Shown here piece after piece: positions 284-54,104 of a stretch of DNA of 64,000 nt. The DNA is taken from positions 1-64,000 of the forward strand of contig JAUTCR010000073.1 of the NCBI GenBank assembly GCA_030673895.1, in the 5' to 3' direction. Every line of letters begins with the position of its first letter. The first letter of the stretch is position 1. The position numbers and the translations under genes were made by a program. The notes under the pieces are model-generated. The model did no database searches, was not told where the DNA came from, and saw only the letters and a program-made list of their open reading frames with translations. This DNA comes from Verrucomicrobiota bacterium JB023 (GTDB taxonomy: Bacteria; Verrucomicrobiota; Verrucomicrobiia; Verrucomicrobiales; Akkermansiaceae).

Positions 284-2467
<2,184 letters not shown>

Positions 2468-2515
2468 AGAGAAGAAAGTGACGCGGGATCGAGGTTCACA
2501 TCCCCAAACCATGTT

Positions 2516-2612
2516 CTGACTCCCTCCGGCGGTACAACCCGCTTCAGGTTCGAAGGGTATCCCGGCGCGCCCGGTGTTCTCAGCTTAACGCACGAAAAGC
2601 TCCCCTGTCTGA
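2516..2612 (-). promoter_or_regulatory. TPP riboswitch (THI element)
   Basis: The minus-strand sequence has the conserved TPP aptamer blocks in order: GGGGAGC near 2605-2599, GCTGAGA near 2583-2577, ACCCTTCGAACCTGA near 2559-2545, GGGTTGTACCGCCGGAGGGA near 2540-2521, closing with GTCAG. It sits about 120 bases upstream of thiC. The 200 bases beyond it, up to the divergent gene at 2815, are AT-rich and presumably hold the promoters of both genes; I could not assign a convincing -35/-10 pair. Confidence 0.95.
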
Positions 2613-2814
2613 ATCGTAAGGATCGCCTTGTCCTATCCAACTGTCAAGCCAACAGGAGTTCTTAAGAAGGTCGAAGTGATGCGGAGATTTTGTAAAATTA
2701 ATGAAAGATTTCTCTAAAATTTATGGGTTTCTAAAATAATCCTTGCGGGATTGTTGCGGAAAATTGTATTGGCGAGGTGTTGACACTTAGGGGTCAGCAA
2801 ACTGCTACACTTCC

Positions 2815-3507
2815 ATGAAAATCAAACTGGCTTCCAAGAAGATTGGGGCTTTCCTTGGCGCTGCGTTGTCGCTCACGCTCGCCAATGGAGAAGAAACGGT
2901 CCCGGTGGGATGGCTCGAGGCAAGCCCCAAGCTTGTTCGTGCCGGAACCTACCCAAATCTCGAATGGGAAATCAACTATCCCGTTGTCGAGAACCTGGTG
3001 ACTGTTCCGCCCGATAACACGATTGTGCCTCTGCAGGAACTGACCATGAAGGTCCGCATCCTGGGGGCTTCATTCCAGTACAGTGCCACGCAATACCTCT
3101 ACACCCAGCTGTGGTATAAGAAGAACAACGGCAGCTGGCAAAATCTGTGGTACGGAAAGCAGAATCAGGTCAATCCCAGCGAAGTTCGCTACCAGACGAC
3201 TGTCAGAGCAGACGATACCTTGTATTTTGGTGCCCGGGGATATCGAAGTGGTTGGCTCCCGTTCTATTACTCGACGGATGATTCGCCGAACATGATCGTG
3301 CTCAAGGACGGCGACTCCGTGCCAAGCTCGCGCCCTGCTTTCTATCAAGGCAGTATCGAGAGCTTTTTGCAGCCTTACCTTGATGACAACAGGGTGATTG
3401 ATATCGGGCCCCGTGATGTGATCATTCTCTATGAGTTGGGTCAAACCAATCCCTCAAGTTCAGGTTTTGATATGCAGGACTTGGTGGCATTGATCACCTT
3501 TGAATAA
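2815..3507 (+). CDS. Exported protein of unknown function
   Basis: The 230-residue product starts with a signal peptide (Lys-rich start, hydrophobic core GAFLGAALSLTLA, likely cut after ANG). The rest is rich in Tyr, Trp and Asn with beta-strand spacing, for example YLYTQLWYKKNNGSWQNLW near residues 97-115, and contains no recognisable domain. It ends in a short DMQDLVALITFE helix. It is the first gene of a plus-strand run that continues with two more exported proteins and ribF (23 bases to the next gene). I do not recognise the family. A periplasmic or surface location is inferred from the signal peptide only. Confidence 0.75.
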   Translation: MKIKLASKKIGAFLGAALSLTLANGEETVPVGWLEASPKLVRAGTYPNLEWEINYPVVENLVTVPPDNTIVPLQELTMKVRILGASFQYSATQYLYTQLWYKKNNGSWQNLWYGKQNQVNPSEVRYQTTVRADDTLYFGARGYRSGWLPFYYSTDDSPNMIVLKDGDSVPSSRPAFYQGSIESFLQPYLDDNRVIDIGPRDVIILYELGQTNPSSSGFDMQDLVALITFE

Positions 3508-42640: not shown

Positions 42641-42680
42641 GAAAAAAGAGCGCCTACCGCTGGTGCACCCGCAGGCGATA
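42641..42680 (-). terminator. Candidate terminator at the end of the giant gene
   Basis: On the minus strand CGCCT and AGGCG, with partial inner pairing, form a stem that overlaps the last codons and the stop (42654-42656), followed by CTCTTTTTT. The stem is imperfect. Confidence 0.4.
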
Positions 42681-45600
42681 GAAGCCACGAGTCGAGGAAG
42701 GCAGGGAGAGCCTCGCCTCTCCTTCAGCGAAGGCGAGATTGCCTGGCCCCGACCACGGATAGCCCTGGGCCCAGAAGCCAAGCGACTTCCACGATGAGGA
42801 CGAGTCAGCCTCGGCTGCGGGAGCGAGGTGCTCGAGGTAATAGACAAGATCCTCGCGAGTGCCTTTGGCGAGAGGAATGACAAGTTCCAGCCCTTCCTCT
42901 CCTTCCTTCACTTGAAGCCGGGGAAGGTTTTTCCTGTCGGGCGAGTCGGCCCCGATGGCGTAAGCGACCAAATTAGGAAGGCCGTCGCAGCTCTGATCCT
43001 CCATGGCCATTTTGGCGAGACTCCGCCCGGGTTGGCTCATGAATTTGGCAAAGCCGGACTGGGCAAGCGAAAGCTCTTCAACCTCGAGCTGCCAGAACCC
43101 GACAGGATGCTCCGAGGGCGAGGGAAAGGAGACGAAATGATGGCTGCCTGGCGCCGGGCGAGTGCCGGGAATGACGCCTGTCCACTCGCTCTCGCCGATC
43201 TTGCTGGCTCGAAGCTGCCAGCCCTCTGGAGCGAGAGAGGATTGGAAAAGAACCCGGTAGCGGAGATCGGGGCGTCCGGACGCAGGGAGGAAGAAGTCGA
43301 GATTGGGCACGCCTCTGCCAGTGGAGAGGTGAGGGAGAGGAGTGGGTTGCGCGGGGGAGAGACCGTTGACCGGATCGATGTTCAACGCATAAGCGAGGAG
43401 GTTTTCGATGCCTTGGGGGTTGTCCGCGATGAAGGGGAAAGCCGCTTCCCCAGCGAGACCGTAGGCAGCCGTCCACTCATCATAAGTGCTGTGAGAGGCC
43501 AAGGGGACGACCTGGATGCCAAGGGTCGCGGCGGTGACCTGACGATCGGTTGCGGCGGTGACCGGGACCTCGTAGGTACTGGGGACCACCCCCGTGGTAT
43601 TCCAGTAGAGGGTGGCTTGTCCCACGTCTTCCTTCTTGGCCACCCAGCCGGACAAGGCGGAGATGTCGAGACTGACGTCCACGGGCACGCCTTCCGGGTC
43701 ATGAGCGCGGAGGGTGAATTCGCGAGTGGAATCAGTAGGCCAGGAAAGCGCCGCCAGGTTGAGGAAGGCAGGGGGCTCGCCCGGCTTCTCGAGAACGTCA
43801 ACGTAAAGCGTGGCGTGGCCGACGCCGGCAGGGGTTTGATCGTCGTAGGCCTCAAGGAGGATGGAGAAGCTCTGTCCCTCGTGCTCGTCGCCCGGAGTCC
43901 AGACCAGTAGTCCGGAAGAATCATCCACCGTTAGACCAGTGGGTGGGTAAAGGGTGCGGTAGCGAACGACTTGGGATGGGGTATCTCCATCGCTGGCTGA
44001 GAGCTGGACGGTCAATGTCTCGCCGACATCGATGGCGAAGCTGCCTGGCGCGGCCAAGACTGGCTGCTCATTGGTGTCGGTGACGGTGAGGGTGAAGGTC
44101 CGACTGGCGCTCAGCGGCTCGGGAGCCCCGTCAGTCACCGTGACCGTGATTTCGACAGCGGAGCCTCCGTGCTCCTCGCCAGTTCGCCAGCGGAGTTGGC
44201 CGCTGGTTTCTCCAATCGTCAGGCCGGGCTGGGGTGGATTGCTGGTGACAGCGTAGCGCAGGAGGCTGGCTGGGCCGTCCTCGTCGCTGCCCACGATGGT
44301 GCGGCGGAAGGTTTCTCCCTCGATGATGGTGACGTCGCCGAGCGTCGGCAGGGTGGGAGCGAGATTGGCCAAATCGACCGTTGTGCTGGCTTCCGCAGCG
44401 GACTTGGCAGCTTCCTGGTTCCCCGACGTGTCGTAGGCAATACTATAGAAGGAGTAGCTGGAGCCGGTGAGCCCCTGATAGAGGGCGGTGGTGGAGCGGG
44501 TTTTCGTGAGCCAAGGTTCGAACGGCCCTCCATCCCGGGAGACATGGATGTCGTAGCTGGAGACGCCTCCGCTATCGCTCCCGGACCAAGCAACGGGGAA
44601 GAAGTTTCCGCTATTCGACGGCAGCTCGGCAATGCGACTGGTGGGTGCTGTCGTATCGGGCGGAACGATGGCCTCGTAGGTCAGGGAGTATGTCCCGGTG
44701 CCATCGCAATCGAGCAAGTGAAGGATGTTCTCCGCCAGTGGGCGTCGCCCAAGACCGATAAAGGTGCGGTCGGTCGTCCAAACGTTTTCGTCGAGAGGGA
44801 TGCTCTGTCCATCCGAGCGCTGAGCGCTGACGAGGCGGAAATCGCCGGCCCCGGGATCCGGCACTCGGAGGTAGGTCCAGCCGGCTTGGGCAAGATCGGG
44901 GGCCGTCAGGGTGATGGTGAGGGAATCTGCCGAGAGAGGTCCGTGTGTCGCCGTCTCGGTGACGGCAACTGGAGCAGTGGTGCCGTCTGACAGGTGAATG
45001 GTGTCCGGCCGGTCAAGGAAATCGGCTTCCTGATTCACGAGGAAATCGGGCAGGCCATCGTCTTTGCTGCCAAGAGCCCGGACCTGTCTAATGGTTTCAT
45101 AAATTTCGACACTTTCGATCAAGGAGAGGCGGGGATCGCCGAGGTCATCCAGATGCTCGAAGTTCGCTTGATAATCAATAAAGAGCCCCTGCAGGCTGGA
45201 AGTCATCAGCCAACGGCCAATCTTGATCTCGCCGGGTGCGAGCGTGCCGAAATCAGCGGTGAGCGATGGGGACAGGTTTTGGCCCGCGACTTCGGTGGCG
45301 ATGATGTCAAAATCAATGAAGAGTCCCTTATCGTTCTCGATGATCTCCGGCTTGCCGGAGGTGATGCGAAGGTTCTTGGCGGAGCCAGCTCCGGTATTTT
45401 GCACCATGACCCCGAGGCTGAAAGGGATGGAAGGCTCGACGAGATCGGTGAAGGGGTCATCCGAGTAAACGTCGCGCTGGTGGAAGTACTTGAGGCGGAG
45501 ATTTGGATTTGGAAAAACGGTGATACTCTGCGGGGCGAGCGGAACGGTCACGCTCTCGCCATCCTGGACGTAGGATAGCTGGCCTTCCACGAGATAGAGT

Positions 45601-48600
45601 GTTTCTCCGGCTGGTGCGGCATCTTGGGTGGGAATTAGATTCCAGCGCCAACTTCCGGTCGCGTTGCCGGATAGTGAGCCACCGGAGATGTTGGAGACTT
45701 CTGGCTCTGTGACACCGAACAACTCGGTGGAGTCAATGCCGGCGGGAGTGGTGATCTTCAGGGAAACCTCAAGGGCTTCGATGGCGGCGGGATCGTTGTT
45801 GATGAGATCGAGGGAAGCCTCGAAGGCATCCCGAGTCATGACCGCCTCCTGCTCCAAGCGAAGCCTGACTTTGGCACACACGCCATCACCCTGGGTCAGG
45901 AAGGCAAGCGCCTCATCCTGCTTTTCGAAGTAGGGGTCGAACAAGTCCAAGTACCCCATGCCCTCGGCGCGTGCGTGGGCGGCTTGCGCCCGGGTAGCGG
46001 CATCCCTCATCTGGGAGGCGGTGATGAAGTCGGTGCTCTGCCCAGCGGGGACTTGATCCGCTTCGAAGATGCCATTGGCGAAATAGGTGAAGGTGCGATT
46101 CCAGCGCTCCACGACAGAGGCTGGATTAATGCCAAAGTCGCTCCGCGAGTGGAAGGGGTAGGATTCAAGTTCGGCAAGTTCTACCGCATCGACCAGGCCG
46201 GCGGAGCGGCTGAACTCGGACTGGAACTGTCCCAGCGCCTCGGCCCAATCGTTGAAGTCCTCATCGTCGGCAAAGCGAAGATAGACCAGCGAGCCATAGG
46301 TGAGCGAGTCGACCGCGGTCGCTTCAAGAAGGGCGTCGGCTTCTGCCTCGAATGCAGCCATCGCATCTAGAGACGCTTTGTTGAGCGCTCGCTTAGCCTC
46401 CAACGTCTTCGCATGCCCGCCGCCGGTGAGCTTGTCGAGGCAGATCAGGGTCTCCACGAGACACTTGAAGATGAGACAGTAGCGCTTGGCGACGGGGTGA
46501 ACCTTGCCCGCTGCCGAGCAACCGCACTTGATGAATTCGTAGGCGAGCTGGGGCCCATTGTCCGCTGTGAGGAGACCCGCAAGGCATTTCGCGACATCGC
46601 CTCGCACCCCACCTCCTGCGCCAAAGTAGGCTGCGCAACTGGTCGGCGAATTGCACTTCTGATCGGTGCAAGTGAGGATGACCTTGATAAGGCACGGATC
46701 GCAGGAGATCACCCCGCCACCGCGAATCGGGGAGGGGGAGGAAATGACGCCATTCCCCCCAGAGACGGGGCGCCCGGGTGGCGTGCCTCCGCAACCTCCA
46801 CGGCCCGAATAACCAACGCAAGCGGTCCCACAGATGACGAGGTCACCGCAAGGGAAACACCAATCGACGCAAGTGACGGGTGAGCCGCAGCCGGAGGCCT
46901 TATTGCTCTTGGTTGGCTTACCGCTTTTATCATTGCGCTCAATGATCAGCGGAACGGTGATCGAGCTTTTCGCAGGGAGAGTGCCGAGCTGTGTGGCGAT
47001 TGATGAGAGGGTCCACTGGTCGGTGGAGCCGAAGGAGATGCCCACATCGTCCGCAGCGATAAGCCCGTGATTGGTCAGAGTAAGGTCAATCTGATTAACC
47101 TCCTCGGTGAGGGCGTCGAGATCGATGTAAGCAGGCTCGATCGTGACCACTGGCTGGGGGACATTGGTCTCGAAGACGGTCTCGACGACGACTTCGTAGC
47201 GATCGTCAATTTCAGTAGGGACGACGTTCCAGATGTATTCCACGCTGATGCGCGAGAGGAAGGCCCGCTCGGTCGTGGTGGTTCCGGGTTGGACGAAGAT
47301 GGTATTGCGGTAGGGATTGTGCTGCTCGGCGGTCGCTTTGATTTGATAGTATCCCTCATTGAGGTCGGGGAAGGTCACCTCGCCGGAGCTGCCGGTGGTG
47401 GCCCGGGCAACCTCAGTGCCATCGACCGCATCGCAAACGATGACCAAGGCGTCGGCCAGAGGCGGCGTACTGGCCGCATAGTAGGTGTATTCATCTTCAC
47501 AGCGGATGGTTAGGTCGCCGGTGGCATCGGAGAGCGCGCGAAAGGTGAAGGGAATGTTCACTCGATTGTCCGCACCCTGAATGGCGAGGTGGCCGCTGTA
47601 GGCGGTGAGGACGATATCCTCGGGAGGACAGAGCTGGAGGGAAATCTCGGCCGATTCTCCGGGCGCGATGGACGGTGCCGGAGAGAGCGTGGCGGAGGAC
47701 AGGTAATCGGTGGCGGGAAGAATGATATCCAGCGGTCCCGTCGGGACGCTTCCCTCATTGGTCACCGTGAAGGTGACAAAATGCTGTTGGCCTGGGATCA
47801 TGCCTGCCTCAAGGCGTGCTCCGGAGTAGGCTAGACGGCTGGTGAGGTCGCGCAGGCTGAGGCTGACGGGGATATCGGCGAGAGCTCCTTCGATGCTCTC
47901 AACTCGCAAGATGCCGGTCGCTTCGGTCGGTGCGTCGGCAGTCGCTTCGATTGACCACTCGAGGGTCGTGGAGGCTAGGGAGTCGAGCGTGGTATTGCCT
48001 CCGGAGAGGGTGCCGGAGAGGGTGCCGGAGAGGGTGCCGGAGAGGGTGATGCCGGAGGGGAAGCCCTGTCCCGAGACTTGAATATCAGAGAGGGGGACAT
48101 CGGTCAGATTGGTGAGCTCCAGGCTGCCGGTGGTTGCTGCGCTCTCGCGGGTCACGGTCGCGGAGAGGGAGCCCGGGTCGGAGGAGAAGCCAAGGAGGGT
48201 GAAGGAGTCCTGAATGGTCGGAGTCGCGACGCCCGGGTGGGTTGCTCCGACGGTGTAGATGCCTCCCTCGCCCGGGAGGGGGGTGAAGGTGAGAGTGAAT
48301 TGACCGGCGGAATCGGTAAGGGCGGAGAGCACCCGCCGGGTCCCTCGAACGTCGAGATGCACATTAACGAGCTTGGAGACGGCTGGCGTTCCGTCCATCT
48401 GATGAGCTGAACCAAAGAGCTGAATCGGGGTGCCGGAGGGGGCGATATCGAGATCAGCCAGCACCGTGGCGGAGTAGGCTGCCTCAACGGAGACCGGATT
48501 GGTTGAAACCTTGAGATTGTTCGTCTCGCTGACCTCGCTCACCGCATCATCGGGATCGACTTGGATGAGTAACCAGTAATCGCCGGTGGCTCGGGGAGTG

Positions 48601-51600
48601 AAGAGATTTTCAGCTCGCTCAAAGAAGAGGTCCGCTGGCAAATCACCATCGAAGGTGTAGGAGTTCACCATTTCGTCCCCGACGTCTAGAATCGGGTCTC
48701 TGGAGAGATAGGTGCGGACCGCGAAGGGGCCTGGAGCTGGAGAGGCACCTTGATTCTCGATGCGATAGCTGTAGCTGAGCAAGGCATCGGTGCGAGCGGT
48801 GGCGGGGAGCTGAATCTGGGTGACGGCGAGTTCAGGCAGATCGAGATCGGTCACCACCAGAGAGGCTTGGGCCGAGGCGTAGTCGGTGGTTGAGGCTGTT
48901 AGGAGGAGATCGCGGTTGCCCTCCGGAACTCCCTCGTCCGCGGTGAGGGTGAAATCAACGAAATTGTCTCCCGCCGGGATGGTGAGGCTGGGTGGATGAG
49001 TGAGCTGGGAAGGGGACGAATTGCTCAACGAGACGACGAGCTCATCGGTGCCAGAGTTTCGGCTGAGTCGCGCGAGCAGGGACTGACCTTCATGAAGGAC
49101 ATCCTTGGGCAGCTCCAGGACGAGGGCGGCCCCGTCGTCATCAGTGACCGTCAAGGACACCTCATTGCTGACGGCCAGCGGAGCTTGGGTCGTGACGTCG
49201 AGGATACTTGCGGTGATCAGGGCATTGCGGTCGGTCTCGGGCACCTCGTTGTCGAGGGGCCGGAGAGCAAATTGAAGCGTATCGATGAAGGCGGGAAAGA
49301 CGACGCTTTCAGGAACGTCTACCGCCTCCGGAGCTGAATTGTCTAACAAGACAGTGAAAGACGAAGCGGAGGCTGGTTCGCGGGTGAGGGTCGCCATCAC
49401 ATTGGCGTTGCTGTCTCCCTCCGAGATGGTGGTCCGATTGAGAGTGAGCGTGAGAACGGGGCGGTCGTTGTCGATGATGGTCAGCGGAGTCGAAGCCGAG
49501 GTGTAACCAGTGGCTCCGGCGCTCAGGGTGACCGGCTCATCAACTTCTGCGATGGCATCATCGATGGCCGCCACGGTGGTGGAGGCCGATGAACTTCCCT
49601 CGAGGAGGACGAGCTGTTCCGGGAGGTCCAGCTGTCCGTAGATGTTTTCCGAAAACAGAACCGTCGCGGAGCCTTGAGCATGATTGCGGGTCACGGTCAC
49701 CGTCGCGGATTCACCTTCGCTCAATTGGCTTGGCTCCGTGGTGATAGTGAGCGTGGAGCGGAGATTGACCGTGACCGGATGGGAGAGAGCGCTGGAGCCC
49801 GCGCCATTGAGCGCTTGGGCATTGATGCGGTTGGTTCCGGGCCGCAGCGTGAGGGGGGCGCTGAAGGTGCCATCAGTGACTGGAATCGGGCCGCCTTGCT
49901 GCTGGCCATCGCGATAAATCAGGACAGTTGCATCCCGCTCCGCTGTTCCTGTGATGGTGACAAGATCCTGGCCCACGGTGGTTTCATCAGCCGGAGCAGT
50001 GATTGTCGGTGGCGCCGGAATGCCGCGCTGCAGATTGACGGTGCGGGTGATCTGACTCGATATTCCTTCGGGAGTCTCGACGACGACGCGCAGTTGATAG
50101 AGTCCGCTCGGAAAGGCATCGAGCGAGAGAACGGCGGTCAGTCCATCGCCAGGAATCAGGTCACGCCCCAGCGATTGCTCGCTCCCGCCATTGGGCATCA
50201 GGAAAAATTCAGCCGCCACAACGCCATCCTGATCCAGAGCGGAGACGCGCAGCAGCTCATCGATACCTGCTAGAATCATCCCCTCGCTGATCGGCTCGTT
50301 TGATGCCGTGAGGGAGGTGATCACTGGCGGAGGGCGAAGCTCGAGCGTGACGGGCTGCGCGGGCCAGTAGTCGGAATCTCCATCCTGTCGCGCCGTGATG
50401 GAAACCGCGCCCCCCTGAAGTATCGTGAGCGTCGACCCCTCGATGCGGGCGACCGAGGCGTCCGAGGACTGGTATTGGACCGGAAGCCCGCTATCCGAGC
50501 TGGCGGAGAGCGTGATGACTGTTCCGGTGAGCGAGGGAGTGGGAAACGTGATTGCTTGCGCGGACTTCGTTGCCTCCAGCGAGACGACCGAAGGATCGCT
50601 GTCGCCGAGCGGGTTCACCGTGACGACGGCAAAGTGGTCGCCTTGTAGCGACGCCAAGTCCCCGACCGGAGCGGCCAGTCCGGCCGTGGTGGCGATGGGG
50701 GTGAGACCCGTCACCTCGGTGAAGGGTGACGAACTCCGATAAATCTTATAGTGATCGACGAGAGCCTGCGGTTGGGCCGTTTCCCAAGTGAGGAAAACCT
50801 CGCCATTGATGAGGGTGAGGAGCGGGTTCGGCGGGTTAGGAAGCCAAGTGGAGGCATTGAGTGAGGTGCCTGGGCTCACATTACCGAAGATATCGACCGT
50901 TGAGATACGGAAGGGATAGCCGGTGGCCGGAATCAGCCCGGTAGCGGTGTATTCCGTCTGATTCAGAGGCAGTAAGATTGGTTCGCCATCTCCAAGGCTG
51001 ATCTGATAATACTCAAGGAACGAGGAGGCATTCTCCGGAGCATCCCAAGAGAAGGTGAGGCTATCGGCCGTGCTAGAGCCTTGAATCCGGGCCACTTCTC
51101 CCACTCCGGATATCGAGGTTAAGGCGGAATAGGAGCGCACCGAAGCGTCGAAACCTCCGAGGGCATCGACAGCTACCACGGCGAAATGGCGGACCACACC
51201 GCCGGGCAGACCGGCAACGGTCGGGCTGAGCTCGCCGGCAGGGAGAGAGGTGTAAGGCGTGAGCCCGTCGACCGTGTCGAAAAAACTCTCGGCCACAAAG
51301 ACATCATAGCGAACCACATCGAGCTGCGCCGTCTCGTTATAGGATGAAAAGTCGAGTCGCACCGCGCCGAACTCGGAGGTGGAGGTCTCCACGAAAAAGC
51401 CACTCCCGGGACCCGTGACAGGGGCCGGGACCGCAGGATCAGGAACAAGGACATCATATTCCCGCGATACGACCTCGCGGCTGGAGCTTACGAACTCCTG
51501 CCCGACAAACAAAGAGATCTCGCGGGACAGGGCCTGAGGCGAAAGAACATAGGCTGCCCCATAGGTTACCGCAGGATTGAAGTTGCCCATCGCATCGACC

Positions 51601-52556
51601 GGGACGATGGCAAAGAAGTGATCGCGACCCGTCGGAAGGTCGCTCAGAACGACGGAATTTATTGTCCCCGGCACGGTGGTGAATGGCGTGAGGCCGGTGA
51701 CATCGGTGAACGCTTCCGTGCCGGACAGGTAGATGGCGAAGTGGTCGACAGGTGCATTGGCCCATTGATTATAGGAGGACCAGTCGAGTGTCGCGGTGTC
51801 CCCCTGGGGAGAGGTCACCGCAGTGAAAGAGCTGATGGGTGCAGGAGGCTCGGAAGGGCTGACCGCCATGGAGAACTCGCGGGAGATTGTTTGCTGGCGC
51901 GGAGAGGTATTGCTCTCGACGAAGAGGGAGACCTCGCGCGAGAGAGCCTGCGGAGAGACGACATACGCGGCGGCGTATTGTACCAAGGACTGGAATTGCC
52001 CAGCCGCATCGACAGCGACGACCGCGAGGAAGTGATCGGTGTAAGGGGTGAGGTCCGTAAGAGAAGCCGTGGTGACGTCTCCACCAACGATAAGAAGAGG
52101 CTCGAGGCCGGTGATGTCGGTCAGGGGACCGTCATCGGAAAGGTAAATGCGAAACTCGGCAATATCGCCATATTGCCAAGGATTGTAAGAGGTCCAATCG
52201 AGGGAAACCGAGTCGCCAGTCGGCGAGGTATCCACGAGCAACCCGGTGACGGCGGGTGGGATGGACTCATCTGAGACGACAAGGGAAATTTCCCGCGAGA
52301 GGGACTCATTGCCGCCTTGTTCAACGAAGAGTGAGACTTCGCGTGAAACCGTCCGCTTCGTTGCCGAGCCCTCTTCGACGAACAGGGAATACTCCCGCGA
52401 GACTCCTTCGCGGAGAAGCAGATCTTGCGCGGAAAGAGGGAGAGATGCGAGAGCCAGAAGCAGGAAAAACGCCGTGGGGAGCCCCATGCGCCAAGGATTA
52501 CGGGCCGTAGAGAACTCGGCAATCCCTCGGGCAAGGACTGTGAAAACGGTTTTCAT
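42654..52556 (-). CDS. Giant secreted multidomain protein with SRE-repeat, fn3, Calx-beta and Cys-rich regions
   Basis: About 3300 residues from the ATG at 52556; the signal is TAFFLLLALASLPLSAQ. Seven short repeats of the form SRE-aromatic/aliphatic-S-LFV (SREYSLFV, SREVSLFV, SREISLVV, SREFSMAV and others) lie at about 40-370, between fn3-like domains. These continue to about 600. Ig/cadherin-like, Calx-beta-like (about 1000-1230) and CARDB-like (about 1240-1360) domains follow. Next are a carboxypeptidase-regulatory-like domain (about 1670-1750), a Cys-rich block with 18 cysteines (about 1885-2050), helical and beta regions, cadherin-like repeats (about 2720-2930), and two copies of the C-terminal module ending GFWQLEVEE and GFYRLRVHQR. 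Probably a surface adhesin; substrate unknown. Confidence 0.85.
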   Translation of the reverse strand: MKTVFTVLARGIAEFSTARNPWRMGLPTAFFLLLALASLPLSAQDLLLREGVSREYSLFVEEGSATKRTVSREVSLFVEQGGNESLSREISLVVSDESIPPAVTGLLVDTSPTGDSVSLDWTSYNPWQYGDIAEFRIYLSDDGPLTDITGLEPLLIVGGDVTTASLTDLTPYTDHFLAVVAVDAAGQFQSLVQYAAAYVVSPQALSREVSLFVESNTSPRQQTISREFSMAVSPSEPPAPISSFTAVTSPQGDTATLDWSSYNQWANAPVDHFAIYLSGTEAFTDVTGLTPFTTVPGTINSVVLSDLPTGRDHFFAIVPVDAMGNFNPAVTYGAAYVLSPQALSREISLFVGQEFVSSSREVVSREYDVLVPDPAVPAPVTGPGSGFFVETSTSEFGAVRLDFSSYNETAQLDVVRYDVFVAESFFDTVDGLTPYTSLPAGELSPTVAGLPGGVVRHFAVVAVDALGGFDASVRSYSALTSISGVGEVARIQGSSTADSLTFSWDAPENASSFLEYYQISLGDGEPILLPLNQTEYTATGLIPATGYPFRISTVDIFGNVSPGTSLNASTWLPNPPNPLLTLINGEVFLTWETAQPQALVDHYKIYRSSSPFTEVTGLTPIATTAGLAAPVGDLASLQGDHFAVVTVNPLGDSDPSVVSLEATKSAQAITFPTPSLTGTVITLSASSDSGLPVQYQSSDASVARIEGSTLTILQGGAVSITARQDGDSDYWPAQPVTLELRPPPVITSLTASNEPISEGMILAGIDELLRVSALDQDGVVAAEFFLMPNGGSEQSLGRDLIPGDGLTAVLSLDAFPSGLYQLRVVVETPEGISSQITRTVNLQRGIPAPPTITAPADETTVGQDLVTITGTAERDATVLIYRDGQQQGGPIPVTDGTFSAPLTLRPGTNRINAQALNGAGSSALSHPVTVNLRSTLTITTEPSQLSEGESATVTVTRNHAQGSATVLFSENIYGQLDLPEQLVLLEGSSSASTTVAAIDDAIAEVDEPVTLSAGATGYTSASTPLTIIDNDRPVLTLTLNRTTISEGDSNANVMATLTREPASASSFTVLLDNSAPEAVDVPESVVFPAFIDTLQFALRPLDNEVPETDRNALITASILDVTTQAPLAVSNEVSLTVTDDDGAALVLELPKDVLHEGQSLLARLSRNSGTDELVVSLSNSSPSQLTHPPSLTIPAGDNFVDFTLTADEGVPEGNRDLLLTASTTDYASAQASLVVTDLDLPELAVTQIQLPATARTDALLSYSYRIENQGASPAPGPFAVRTYLSRDPILDVGDEMVNSYTFDGDLPADLFFERAENLFTPRATGDYWLLIQVDPDDAVSEVSETNNLKVSTNPVSVEAAYSATVLADLDIAPSGTPIQLFGSAHQMDGTPAVSKLVNVHLDVRGTRRVLSALTDSAGQFTLTFTPLPGEGGIYTVGATHPGVATPTIQDSFTLLGFSSDPGSLSATVTRESAATTGSLELTNLTDVPLSDIQVSGQGFPSGITLSGTLSGTLSGTLSGGNTTLDSLASTTLEWSIEATADAPTEATGILRVESIEGALADIPVSLSLRDLTSRLAYSGARLEAGMIPGQQHFVTFTVTNEGSVPTGPLDIILPATDYLSSATLSPAPSIAPGESAEISLQLCPPEDIVLTAYSGHLAIQGADNRVNIPFTFRALSDATGDLTIRCEDEYTYYAASTPPLADALVIVCDAVDGTEVARATTGSSGEVTFPDLNEGYYQIKATAEQHNPYRNTIFVQPGTTTTERAFLSRISVEYIWNVVPTEIDDRYEVVVETVFETNVPQPVVTIEPAYIDLDALTEEVNQIDLTLTNHGLIAADDVGISFGSTDQWTLSSIATQLGTLPAKSSITVPLIIERNDKSGKPTKSNKASGCGSPVTCVDWCFPCGDLVICGTACVGYSGRGGCGGTPPGRPVSGGNGVISSPSPIRGGGVISCDPCLIKVILTCTDQKCNSPTSCAAYFGAGGGVRGDVAKCLAGLLTADNGPQLAYEFIKCGCSAAGKVHPVAKRYCLIFKCLVETLICLDKLTGGGHAKTLEAKRALNKASLDAMAAFEAEADALLEATAVDSLTYGSLVYLRFADDEDFNDWAEALGQFQSEFSRSAGLVDAVELAELESYPFHSRSDFGINPASVVERWNRTFTYFANGIFEADQVPAGQSTDFITASQMRDAATRAQAAHARAEGMGYLDLFDPYFEKQDEALAFLTQGDGVCAKVRLRLEQEAVMTRDAFEASLDLINNDPAAIEALEVSLKITTPAGIDSTELFGVTEPEVSNISGGSLSGNATGSWRWNLIPTQDAAPAGETLYLVEGQLSYVQDGESVTVPLAPQSITVFPNPNLRLKYFHQRDVYSDDPFTDLVEPSIPFSLGVMVQNTGAGSAKNLRITSGKPEIIENDKGLFIDFDIIATEVAGQNLSPSLTADFGTLAPGEIKIGRWLMTSSLQGLFIDYQANFEHLDDLGDPRLSLIESVEIYETIRQVRALGSKDDGLPDFLVNQEADFLDRPDTIHLSDGTTAPVAVTETATHGPLSADSLTITLTAPDLAQAGWTYLRVPDPGAGDFRLVSAQRSDGQSIPLDENVWTTDRTFIGLGRRPLAENILHLLDCDGTGTYSLTYEAIVPPDTTAPTSRIAELPSNSGNFFPVAWSGSDSGGVSSYDIHVSRDGGPFEPWLTKTRSTTALYQGLTGSSYSFYSIAYDTSGNQEAAKSAAEASTTVDLANLAPTLPTLGDVTIIEGETFRRTIVGSDEDGPASLLRYAVTSNPPQPGLTIGETSGQLRWRTGEEHGGSAVEITVTVTDGAPEPLSASRTFTLTVTDTNEQPVLAAPGSFAIDVGETLTVQLSASDGDTPSQVVRYRTLYPPTGLTVDDSSGLLVWTPGDEHEGQSFSILLEAYDDQTPAGVGHATLYVDVLEKPGEPPAFLNLAALSWPTDSTREFTLRAHDPEGVPVDVSLDISALSGWVAKKEDVGQATLYWNTTGVVPSTYEVPVTAATDRQVTAATLGIQVVPLASHSTYDEWTAAYGLAGEAAFPFIADNPQGIENLLAYALNIDPVNGLSPAQPTPLPHLSTGRGVPNLDFFLPASGRPDLRYRVLFQSSLAPEGWQLRASKIGESEWTGVIPGTRPAPGSHHFVSFPSPSEHPVGFWQLEVEELSLAQSGFAKFMSQPGRSLAKMAMEDQSCDGLPNLVAYAIGADSPDRKNLPRLQVKEGEEGLELVIPLAKGTREDLVYYLEHLAPAAEADSSSSWKSLGFWAQGYPWSGPGNLAFAEGEARLSLPSSTRGFYRLRVHQR
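48000..48047 (-). repeat. 12-bp tandem repeat inside the giant gene
   Basis: On the plus strand the unit GCCGGAGAGGGT is repeated four times head to tail (the first copy lacks one base). In the protein it gives SGTL repeated (TLSGTLSGTLSGTLSGG, near residues 1502-1518). Multiples of three keep the frame, so copy number can vary without breaking the gene. Confidence 0.9.
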
Positions 52557-52633
52557 TGCGATCCGAGACGGCAAATGAGCGAGTGATTCGTGTCCGGGAA
52601 AGGGCGTCTTGGACCCGCCGCTTCCCGGGCCGC

Positions 52634-53881
52634 CTAGGGTCGGACAACCTTGACTTGGATGGCCGAGTAGCCGGTGTTGACCGGCAATTCGGCTGTCCAC
52701 TGGATCACCAGCGGGTCGGTGCTGACCACGGTGTCAACAGAGGCATCAATGATGGTCGCATTCGCATCGGATCGCGGAGTGATGCGGACTTGCACGGTGG
52801 AAGCTTGCTCGACGTTTGTGGTCTGGATGACGATAGGAGTCGTGGTGGTTTCGCCTAGCGAGACATCAGCACCTTCCGCTCCGAAGGAGGCGCGGGGATC
52901 CGCCGGTGCGGTCTCTCCGCCGATGGATAGAATCTCGACCTCGGGCGCGGTTGCGGGAGGCCAAAGGACGGCGGTGTCCCCACTGCTCAGCGGCACAACG
53001 GAAGGGTCGGGAGTCAACGAAAGCGTGCTGTTATTGGCCACGCGTTCCACACGGATGCGGCCTAGTCCTCCCGACTGCCAACCAGACCCACCCAGTGCGG
53101 TGAGGGCGCCGCTGCCAGCGAGGGAGTCGCAGACCAGGCGGAGTCCACCACCCGAGCCACCGCCGGTGTCATTATAGGAACTGTAGCCTGTGTCGATGCC
53201 AGCTCCACCATTGGCTCGGAGCTCGCCATTAATGGTGATGCCTTGGGCTGCCGCGATGAGGAGAGCGCCGCCGCCCGCACCGCCCCCACGGCCGCGGCCA
53301 CTTTCGGGGTCGCCAGCTCCACCAGAGCCACCAAGGAGAGGGATGAGAGAAGGATTGCCATAAGTTGGGGAGTTGGAGACTGCCGTTCCGTAACTTCCGC
53401 TGGTTCCCGCGTCACCTTGGCGAAACCCTCCGCCGGGCCCAAAACCGGCTGAGGCGCGAGGTGTCCCGCTGAAGGATCCCGCCGCACCCCGGAACCCGCC
53501 GGGGCCTCCTTCGGCAACAAGCGGAGCCAGCTGATGATCCTGACCATCCAGCGCCACCGTGCCATCAATGGTCACGTCTCCATTGACTAACCAGACAACG
53601 GGAGCTTTGGAGGGATGATTCGTGAAAGTCAGGGTCGCGCCCTCGGCAATGGTTACGGTCGAGTAGTTGAAAACAACCGCCCACTTCTCCGCATCATAGA
53701 TTCCGCTCGCGCTATTGGCTGCATCCCATTGTCCAGTCGCGGCGAGGGATAAATCGATGGTTGTGTCCTCGGTGATGTTCAGGACTCCGCTTGACCCATC
53801 CGCTCCGGGAATCGTGATAGCTCCCAAGCTGGCGTTTTGAGTAAAAACAACGAGGGAAATTAGGGTGAGGGTTGTTCTCAT
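52634..53881 (-). CDS. Glycine-rich exported protein
   Basis: About 415 residues from the ATG at 53881, which begins a signal peptide (RTTLTLISLVVFTQNASLGA). Residues 20-110 look like the start of a beta-helix (VTIAEGATLTFTNHPSKAP, then VVWLVNGDVTIDGTVALDGQ). Residues 115-260 are very Gly-rich (FGPGGGFRQGDAGTSG, GRGRGGGAGGGALLIAAAQG). An Ig-like C-terminal domain ends STVQVRITP and TGYSAIQVKVVRP. No catalytic motif. The next gene, 77 bases on, is the giant protein, so the two form a likely operon. Confidence 0.78.
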   Translation of the reverse strand: MRTTLTLISLVVFTQNASLGAITIPGADGSSGVLNITEDTTIDLSLAATGQWDAANSASGIYDAEKWAVVFNYSTVTIAEGATLTFTNHPSKAPVVWLVNGDVTIDGTVALDGQDHQLAPLVAEGGPGGFRGAAGSFSGTPRASAGFGPGGGFRQGDAGTSGSYGTAVSNSPTYGNPSLIPLLGGSGGAGDPESGRGRGGGAGGGALLIAAAQGITINGELRANGGAGIDTGYSSYNDTGGGSGGGLRLVCDSLAGSGALTALGGSGWQSGGLGRIRVERVANNSTLSLTPDPSVVPLSSGDTAVLWPPATAPEVEILSIGGETAPADPRASFGAEGADVSLGETTTTPIVIQTTNVEQASTVQVRITPRSDANATIIDASVDTVVSTDPLVIQWTAELPVNTGYSAIQVKVVRP

Positions 53882-53893
53882 GCTTACCCGATT

Positions 53894-53923
53894 TTTATAG
53901 AATCGATCTTTTGCCCATATCAA
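53894..53923 (-). promoter_or_regulatory. Promoter of the glycine-rich/giant protein operon
   Basis: On the minus strand TTGATA (53923-53918) and TATAAA (53899-53894) are separated by 18 bases, each matching five of six consensus bases. The expected transcript start leaves only about six bases before the ATG at 53881, so the mRNA may be nearly leaderless. Confidence 0.55.
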
Positions 53924-54066: not shown

Positions 54067-54104
54067 TAAAAAGGCCCCGGCGGTCTAAGCGCCGGGGGAG
54101 GCCG
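54067..54104 (-). terminator. Intrinsic terminator of galM
   Basis: On the minus strand CCCCGGCG and CGCCGGGG pair (8 bp) around CTTAGAC, followed by CCTTTTT. It begins about 25 bases after the galM stop at 54126. Confidence 0.8.

What the first reader, a model, noticed from the sequence alone, without database searches (positions are those of the whole stretch)
42654..53881. Two-gene surface system: glycine-rich protein plus 3300-residue multidomain protein
Seen: both have signal peptides, share one good promoter and lie 77 bases apart. The giant combines SRE-LFV repeats, fn3-like, Calx-beta-like, CARDB-like and cadherin-like domains, and a Cys-rich block; the small one is beta-helix-like and very Gly-rich. 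Inferred: a surface adhesion or fibre system, the small protein possibly a partner or base.
Basis: partly seen in the sequence, partly recalled or inferred. Interest (0 to 1): 0.52.

Follow-up and report, generated by a model that had tools for sequence, protein, structure and literature searches.

The report
Repeat-motif protein with glycine-rich partner
Next to a giant secreted protein sits a small glycine-rich secreted protein, and related bacteria show that the small one goes not with the giant as such but with a short repeated motif at the giant's front end, which suggests that the two proteins fit together outside the cell.

Summary
The two genes are real. A 415-aa Gly-rich secreted protein (52634-53881, -) lies 77 bases upstream of a 3300-aa multidomain secreted protein (42654-52556, -), in a relative of Roseibacillus. 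Giants that share this protein's core are widespread and mostly lack the partner: 6 of 27 giants with a readable 5' side have it. The partner goes with the tandem SRE motif (SRExSLF) at the giant's N-terminus. In three SRE-led genome searches (387, 24 and 384 genomes, partly overlapping), 19 of 20 distinct SRE loci lie beside a gene of the P0002 family. Five of these were new loci found after the rule was stated. SRE proteins range from 236 to 3911 aa on unrelated scaffolds, and gene order can be reversed. The SRE-linked Gly proteins form one side of a supported branch (96/96), with subclades that follow SRE architecture. The model of the giant's N-terminus shows three fn3 modules joined by unstructured SRE stretches. 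Best reading: an undescribed extracellular pair in which SRE stretches dock the Gly-rich protein. The association is shown; the binding is inferred.

The parts
52634..53881 (-). Gly-rich secreted protein P0002, 415 aa: signal-peptide-like N-terminus, probable beta-helix (res. about 23-262 with a Gly-rich unstructured insert 119-202), Ig-like C-terminal domain (res. 314-415)
   Evidence: no Pfam or NCBIfam match
42654..52556 (-). Giant secreted multidomain protein P0001, 3300 aa
52269..52427 (-). SRE stretch 1 (res. 44-96): three SRE motifs, modelled as unstructured
51960..52268 (-). fn3 module 1 (res. 97-199)
51858..51959 (-). SRE stretch 2 (res. 200-233): two motifs
51543..51857 (-). fn3 module 2 (res. 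234-338)
51441..51542 (-). SRE stretch 3 (res. 339-372): two motifs
51114..51440 (-). fn3 module 3 (res. 373-481)
48513..48836 (-). CARDB domain (res. 1241-1348)
   Evidence: E 9.7e-12
46926..47261 (-). core1, conserved segment before the variable slot (res. 1766-1877)
46332..46904 (-). Cys-rich block, start of the variable slot between core1 and core2 (res. 1885-2075)
44496..45887 (-). core2, best conserved segment of the giants, unnamed in Pfam (res. 2224-2687)
43782..44354 (-). cadherin-like/He_PIG-like pair, below Pfam cut-off (res. 2735-2925)
42657..43529 (-). C-terminal region (res. 3010-3300); first copy of a C-terminal module shared with many secreted proteins of relatives, and by eye a second copy
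53894..53923 (-). Promoter-like TTGATA-18-TATAAA before the pair (read by eye, not listed by the scan)
54075..54097 (-). Terminator-like stem between the upstream gene and the pair

Best explanation
The locus is one case of an undescribed extracellular two-protein unit: a secreted protein that carries tandem SRE motifs and a secreted Gly-rich protein (probable beta-helix plus Ig-like domain) made from the next gene. Shown: the two families lie side by side on the same strand, in either order, across unrelated scaffolds and several families and classes of Verrucomicrobiota/Kiritimatiellota, and the Gly tree follows the SRE architecture. Inferred: both are co-expressed and exported, and the SRE stretches, which are conserved yet unfolded in the model, are docking strands that become ordered when the Gly-rich protein binds them. 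In the window the giant's fn3, CARDB and cadherin-like chain would be the long arm outside the cell and its N-terminal 3+2+2 SRE stretches the place where Gly-rich subunits attach. The giant core is an optional extension, not the defining part.
For: SRE-led searches: 6 of 6 loci in 387 genomes beside a Gly gene (a seventh hit, G303 at E 4e-4, shows no repeat); 9 of 10 in 24 hand-picked genomes; 12 of 12 in 384 genomes, five of them new and tested after the rule was stated. Distinct total 19 of 20, all same strand, gaps -140 to 225 bp on longest ORFs. Core giants: SRE 5 of 5 with Gly, non-SRE 1 of 22. Gly tree of 25: 15 SRE-linked rows on one side of a 96/96 branch; subclades D (8 rows, 100/99), U (4 rows, 96/91), A (2 rows, 100/99) match SRE architecture; the R. 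persicicus exception falls with non-SRE relatives at 100/100. SRE stretches have pLDDT 24-34 yet hold 21 invariant columns, all within or next to SRE motifs.
Against: No physical evidence of binding; no complex could be modelled. The alignments behind both models are shallow (7 and 8 rows), so low pLDDT over SRE may reflect failure on a repeat rather than disorder. The SRE model A3 was built only from SRE proteins beside Gly genes, so diverged SRE arrays elsewhere could be missed. One SRE array (G427:C396, a truncated gene on a 3.7-kb contig) has no Gly gene beside it. The Gly superfamily is wider than the SRE system: R. persicicus Gly sits beside a giant without SRE. For G050 the pair is inferred from two contig ends.
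Confidence: 0.5

Rival explanations
1. Adhesion or fibre system: the giant is a surface adhesin and the Gly-rich protein a base, cap or matrix component that does not bind the SRE stretches.
For: Signal-peptide-like starts; fn3, CARDB and cadherin-like modules; beta-helix and Ig-like or CBM21-like fold in the partner.
Against: Most giants with the same core lack the partner (21 of 27), and small SRE proteins of 236-343 aa without any giant chain have it.
Confidence: 0.2
2. SRE motifs are self-assembling beta strands (solenoid or amyloid-like, about 18-21 aa period) and the Gly-rich protein is their nucleator or chaperone.
For: Regular repeats of about 20 aa, alternating polar/hydrophobic residues, mostly 3-7 copies.
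Against: In the window and in most type-D proteins (Gly first) the motifs come as 3, 2 and 2 split by fn3 modules of about 105 aa, which gives no long stack; the model shows no strands there.
Confidence: 0.13
3. Co-expression without contact: two secreted proteins that bind the same polysaccharide or act in the same uptake step.
For: C-terminal domain of P0002 resembles CBM21 and N-terminal domains of alpha-glucan enzymes (Z 8.4-9.0), close to the background level for common folds.
Against: It does not explain why SRE, rather than other modules, predicts the partner across unrelated scaffolds, nor why Gly subclades follow SRE architecture.
Confidence: 0.12

Closest known systems
Cohesin-dockerin systems, including the proposed 'planctosome' (PMC6461901, passages read)
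   Same: Secreted multidomain proteins held together outside the cell by short repeated docking modules; distant Gly relatives lie beside cohesin genes (L210, L211) and in an operon with a dockerin protein (L074).
   Different: No cohesin or dockerin in P0001 or P0002; the SRE motif is about 6 residues in an 18-21 aa repeat, unlike a dockerin.
Core giants of Verrucomicrobiota, Planctomycetota and Cyanobacteria (core1, variable slot, core2)
   Same: P0001 has both cores in order; 80 best relatives fetched of 387 confirmed.
   Different: Most lack SRE and the Gly partner; other N-termini, slots and C-termini.
RHS/YD-repeat and Hint proteins (polymorphic toxin systems, PMC3482391, passages read)
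   Same: In two relatives the slot after core1 holds RHS repeats (L067) or a Hint domain (L069).
   Different: P0001 has neither; its slot is Cys-rich and helical-looking, and the protein continues into core2.

Membership tests
SRE + Gly-rich pair (defined here) | Tandem SRE motifs, 12-30 aa apart, in a secreted protein | tested here: met
   Seven motifs at the N-terminus of P0001; signal peptide by eye
SRE + Gly-rich pair (defined here) | Adjacent same-strand gene of the SRE-linked clade of the Gly family | tested here: met
   P0002 is in that clade, type D
SRE + Gly-rich pair (defined here) | Physical binding of the two proteins | not testable with these tools
   No complex modelling or bench data
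Cohesin-dockerin complex | Cohesin domain in one partner and dockerin in the other | tested here: not met
   Pfam scan of P0001 and P0002 up to E=1 lists neither
RHS/YD-repeat polymorphic toxin | RHS repeats and C-terminal toxin domain | tested here: not met
   No RHS or named toxin match in P0001; RHS present only in relative L067
Two-partner secretion (TpsA/TpsB) | POTRA/beta-barrel transporter as the small partner and TPS domain in the large one | tested here: not met
   No such Pfam or NCBIfam match
Core giant family (core1-slot-core2) | core1 and core2 in order in one protein | tested here: met
Functional amyloid (curli-like) | Strand-turn-strand repeats that polymerise | not testable with these tools
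   Repeat period fits loosely; AF2 shows no strands in the SRE stretches; polymerisation needs the bench

The most novel reading that the evidence does not exclude
The SRE motif is a new class of extracellular docking peptide and the Gly-rich beta-helix/Ig protein its dedicated receptor: a plug-and-socket system, independent of cohesin-dockerin, that Verrucomicrobiota attach to secreted proteins from about 240 to 3900 residues to build multi-subunit assemblies outside the cell.
Probability: 0.35. Interest if true: 0.75.

Novelty: new variant of a known kind. Interest (0 to 1): 0.52.

Why it matters
Giant secreted proteins of Verrucomicrobiota and Planctomycetota are mostly unexplained. Here a short motif predicts a specific neighbour gene across unrelated scaffolds, which turns 'a giant of unknown function' into a testable binding question with small, expressible parts (a 415-aa protein and a stretch of about 55 residues with three SRE motifs). 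If the docking holds, it gives a new extracellular assembly module and a handle on what such giants build. The core2 segment, found in 387 confirmed places and unnamed in Pfam, is a second open family.

Tried and rejected
Pairing as a property of the giant: rejected. Pfam/NCBIfam/PDB sequence searches for P0002: nothing useful. PDB search with core2: nothing (best E 0.68). Pfam on the core2 alignment: only three weak single-member hits. Foldseek for P0002: no match at E<=0.001; VIA-align places its C-terminal domain near lmo2446 and CBM21 (Z 9.0 and 8.4) and the beta-helix part near the Awp1 A-domain (Z 7.6), all near the background level, so no function is drawn from them. SRE in Planctomycetota: 0 of 294 genomes; the tool warns that without a positive control this shows little. 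Literature: the strings SREVSV, SREVSL, ISREVS, SREFSV, ISREYS give only three unrelated papers; searches on Verrucomicrobia giant proteins, Roseibacillus adhesion (66), cohesin/dockerin (67), Pontiella (68) and fn3 surface operons (86) gave no description of the pair; most were seen as listings, four papers by passages. My first neighbour list missed the Gly gene of L118 because a longer antisense ORF was preferred; corrected by scanning all ORFs.

Full report
What is there. The window is part of contig C73 of a 4.03-Mb genome. On the minus strand a 415-aa Gly-rich protein (52634-53881) is followed after 77 bases by a 3300-aa protein (42654-52556). A terminator-like stem lies upstream of the pair. 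A -35/-10-like site is visible at 53923-53894 but the scan's rule does not accept it; co-transcription is plausible, not shown. One search supports fn3 and CARDB above the Pfam cut-off; the cadherin-like match is below it and Calx-beta is not found.

The giant family. Residues of about 960-3020 form a conserved frame found in other giants of the same order, including a 4943-aa paralogue in the same genome on contig C64. The best conserved segment, core2 (residues 2224-2687), has 387 confirmed relatives in the genome contigs, of which the best 80 were kept; they are mostly Verrucomicrobiota, with Planctomycetota, Cyanobacteria and one Sedimenticola genome. It has no Pfam name. Between core1 and core2 lies a slot whose content differs: Cys/Gly-rich and helical-looking in the window and five others, a different segment of about 400 aa in G001:C9 and G055, RHS repeats ending the gene in G051:C81, a Hint domain ending the gene in G011:C12, and a Gly run then stop in G037:C92.

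The partner is not tied to this frame. Among 27 distinct core giants with an intact 5' end and at least 800 bp upstream room, 6 have a Gly gene within 600 bp. Five of these six carry SRE motifs, and none of the 27 has SRE without the partner. The sixth, R. persicicus, has a Gly relative (32% identity to P0002) and no SRE. Seven further giants with less upstream room were left out of this count; one of them is G050, whose Gly gene lies on a facing contig end.

The partner is tied to SRE. A regular expression for two SRE-like motifs 12-30 aa apart, run over 4470 ORFs in 115 loci, found 18 ORFs (15 distinct) against 1 in shuffled sequences; all 15 lie beside a Gly gene, one of them (G050) by way of two facing contig ends. 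These loci had been chosen by core2 or by Gly, so I then searched by SRE alone. In 387 phylum genomes: 6 loci, 6 beside Gly, plus a marginal hit without repeats. In 24 hand-picked genomes: 10 loci, 9 beside Gly; the miss is a truncated gene on a 3.7-kb contig. In 384 class genomes: 12 loci, 12 beside Gly, five of them new and checked after the rule was stated; two of the 12 are the same records as loci seen before under other handles, judged by identical coordinates. Removing overlaps gives 19 of 20. All pairs share a strand. Fourteen have Gly first and five have the SRE gene first; the latter encode small proteins of 236-496 aa with the motifs towards the C-terminus. The SRE model was built from proteins beside Gly genes, so strongly diverged arrays could escape; this is the main bias.

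Co-inheritance. A tree of 25 Gly-superfamily proteins (made before the five new loci were found) puts all 15 SRE-linked ones on one side of a branch with 96/96 support. Inside it, Gly proteins followed by fn3-SRE proteins (8 rows), preceded by small SRE proteins (4 rows) and followed by AREFSL-type proteins (2 rows) are each one side of a supported branch (100/99, 96/91, 100/99). R. persicicus and the cohesin-linked relatives fall on the other side at 100/100. The root is at the midpoint only. The carriers include Pontiella sulfatireligans (Kiritimatiellota in NCBI taxonomy).

How it may work. The AF2 model of the giant's residues 44-481 has three fn3 modules with block averages mostly 75-90 and three SRE stretches with pLDDT of about 24-34 and no assigned secondary structure; Foldseek confirms fn3 (E 4e-12). 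Those stretches (121 residues) hold 21 of 82 invariant columns of the seven-row alignment, all in or next to the motif. Conserved but unfolded, repeated 3+2+2 in the window and several type-D proteins, this looks like a set of linear docking motifs. The P0002 model has probable beta-helix strands, a Gly-rich unstructured insert and an Ig-like C-terminal domain. The inferred mechanism is that the Gly protein binds SRE stretches outside the cell, perhaps several copies per giant. Binding, export, surface location and function are all untested.

Comparison and novelty. No cohesin, dockerin, RHS, Hint, TPS or sorting family was found in the two window proteins. Distant Gly relatives lie beside cohesin-bearing proteins (L210, L211) and, fused to Kelch repeats, in operons of which one was scanned and holds a dockerin protein, which fits a general role in extracellular assembly. 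No paper describing the SRE motif or the pair was found in the held library. I rate it a new variant of a known kind (modular extracellular assembly); if docking is shown it would be a new docking class.

Noticed in passing
window 45887-46926 and L067, L069, L065, L066, L068: Giants share core1 and core2 but the segment between them is a variable slot: Cys-rich/helical-looking, a different segment of about 400 aa, RHS repeats, Hint domain, or a Gly run and stop; in two cases the gene ends after the slot and core2 starts its own secreted gene.
   Followed up: partly
window 44496-45887 (core2): A conserved segment of about 460 aa with 387 confirmed relatives across Verrucomicrobiota, Planctomycetota, Cyanobacteria and one proteobacterium has no Pfam family.
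   Followed up: partly
window 42657-43529; L019, L021, L022, L024, L025, L026, L028: C-terminal module (NLLxYAL...FxRLxV) recurs at the C-terminus of other proteins in relatives (7 of 9 loci looked at end 4-108 aa after the match; the other 2 could not be read); possible sorting or anchoring domain without a Pfam name.
   Followed up: partly
L072 (G002:C159), L073 (G050:C49), L074 (G057:C95): A conserved run of about six same-strand genes has a Kelch + Gly-rich fusion protein (694-785 aa) with a neighbour that in L074 carries a dockerin domain.
   Followed up: partly
L210:3169-10061: Distant Gly gene followed by an 1854-aa protein with a cohesin domain, a caspase-type peptidase domain and a match to the core2 profile.
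   Followed up: no
L059, L060, L064, L065 (downstream of the giants): Giants without the window's C-terminal module are followed by a small secreted protein of 243-255 aa ending in a PEP-CTERM-like tail (by eye), a candidate alternative anchor partner; the window giant has none.
   Followed up: no
L204:1728-18287 (G013:C49): A 5519-aa secreted giant without core1, core2 or SRE lies 58 bp downstream of an SRE-Gly pair.
   Followed up: no
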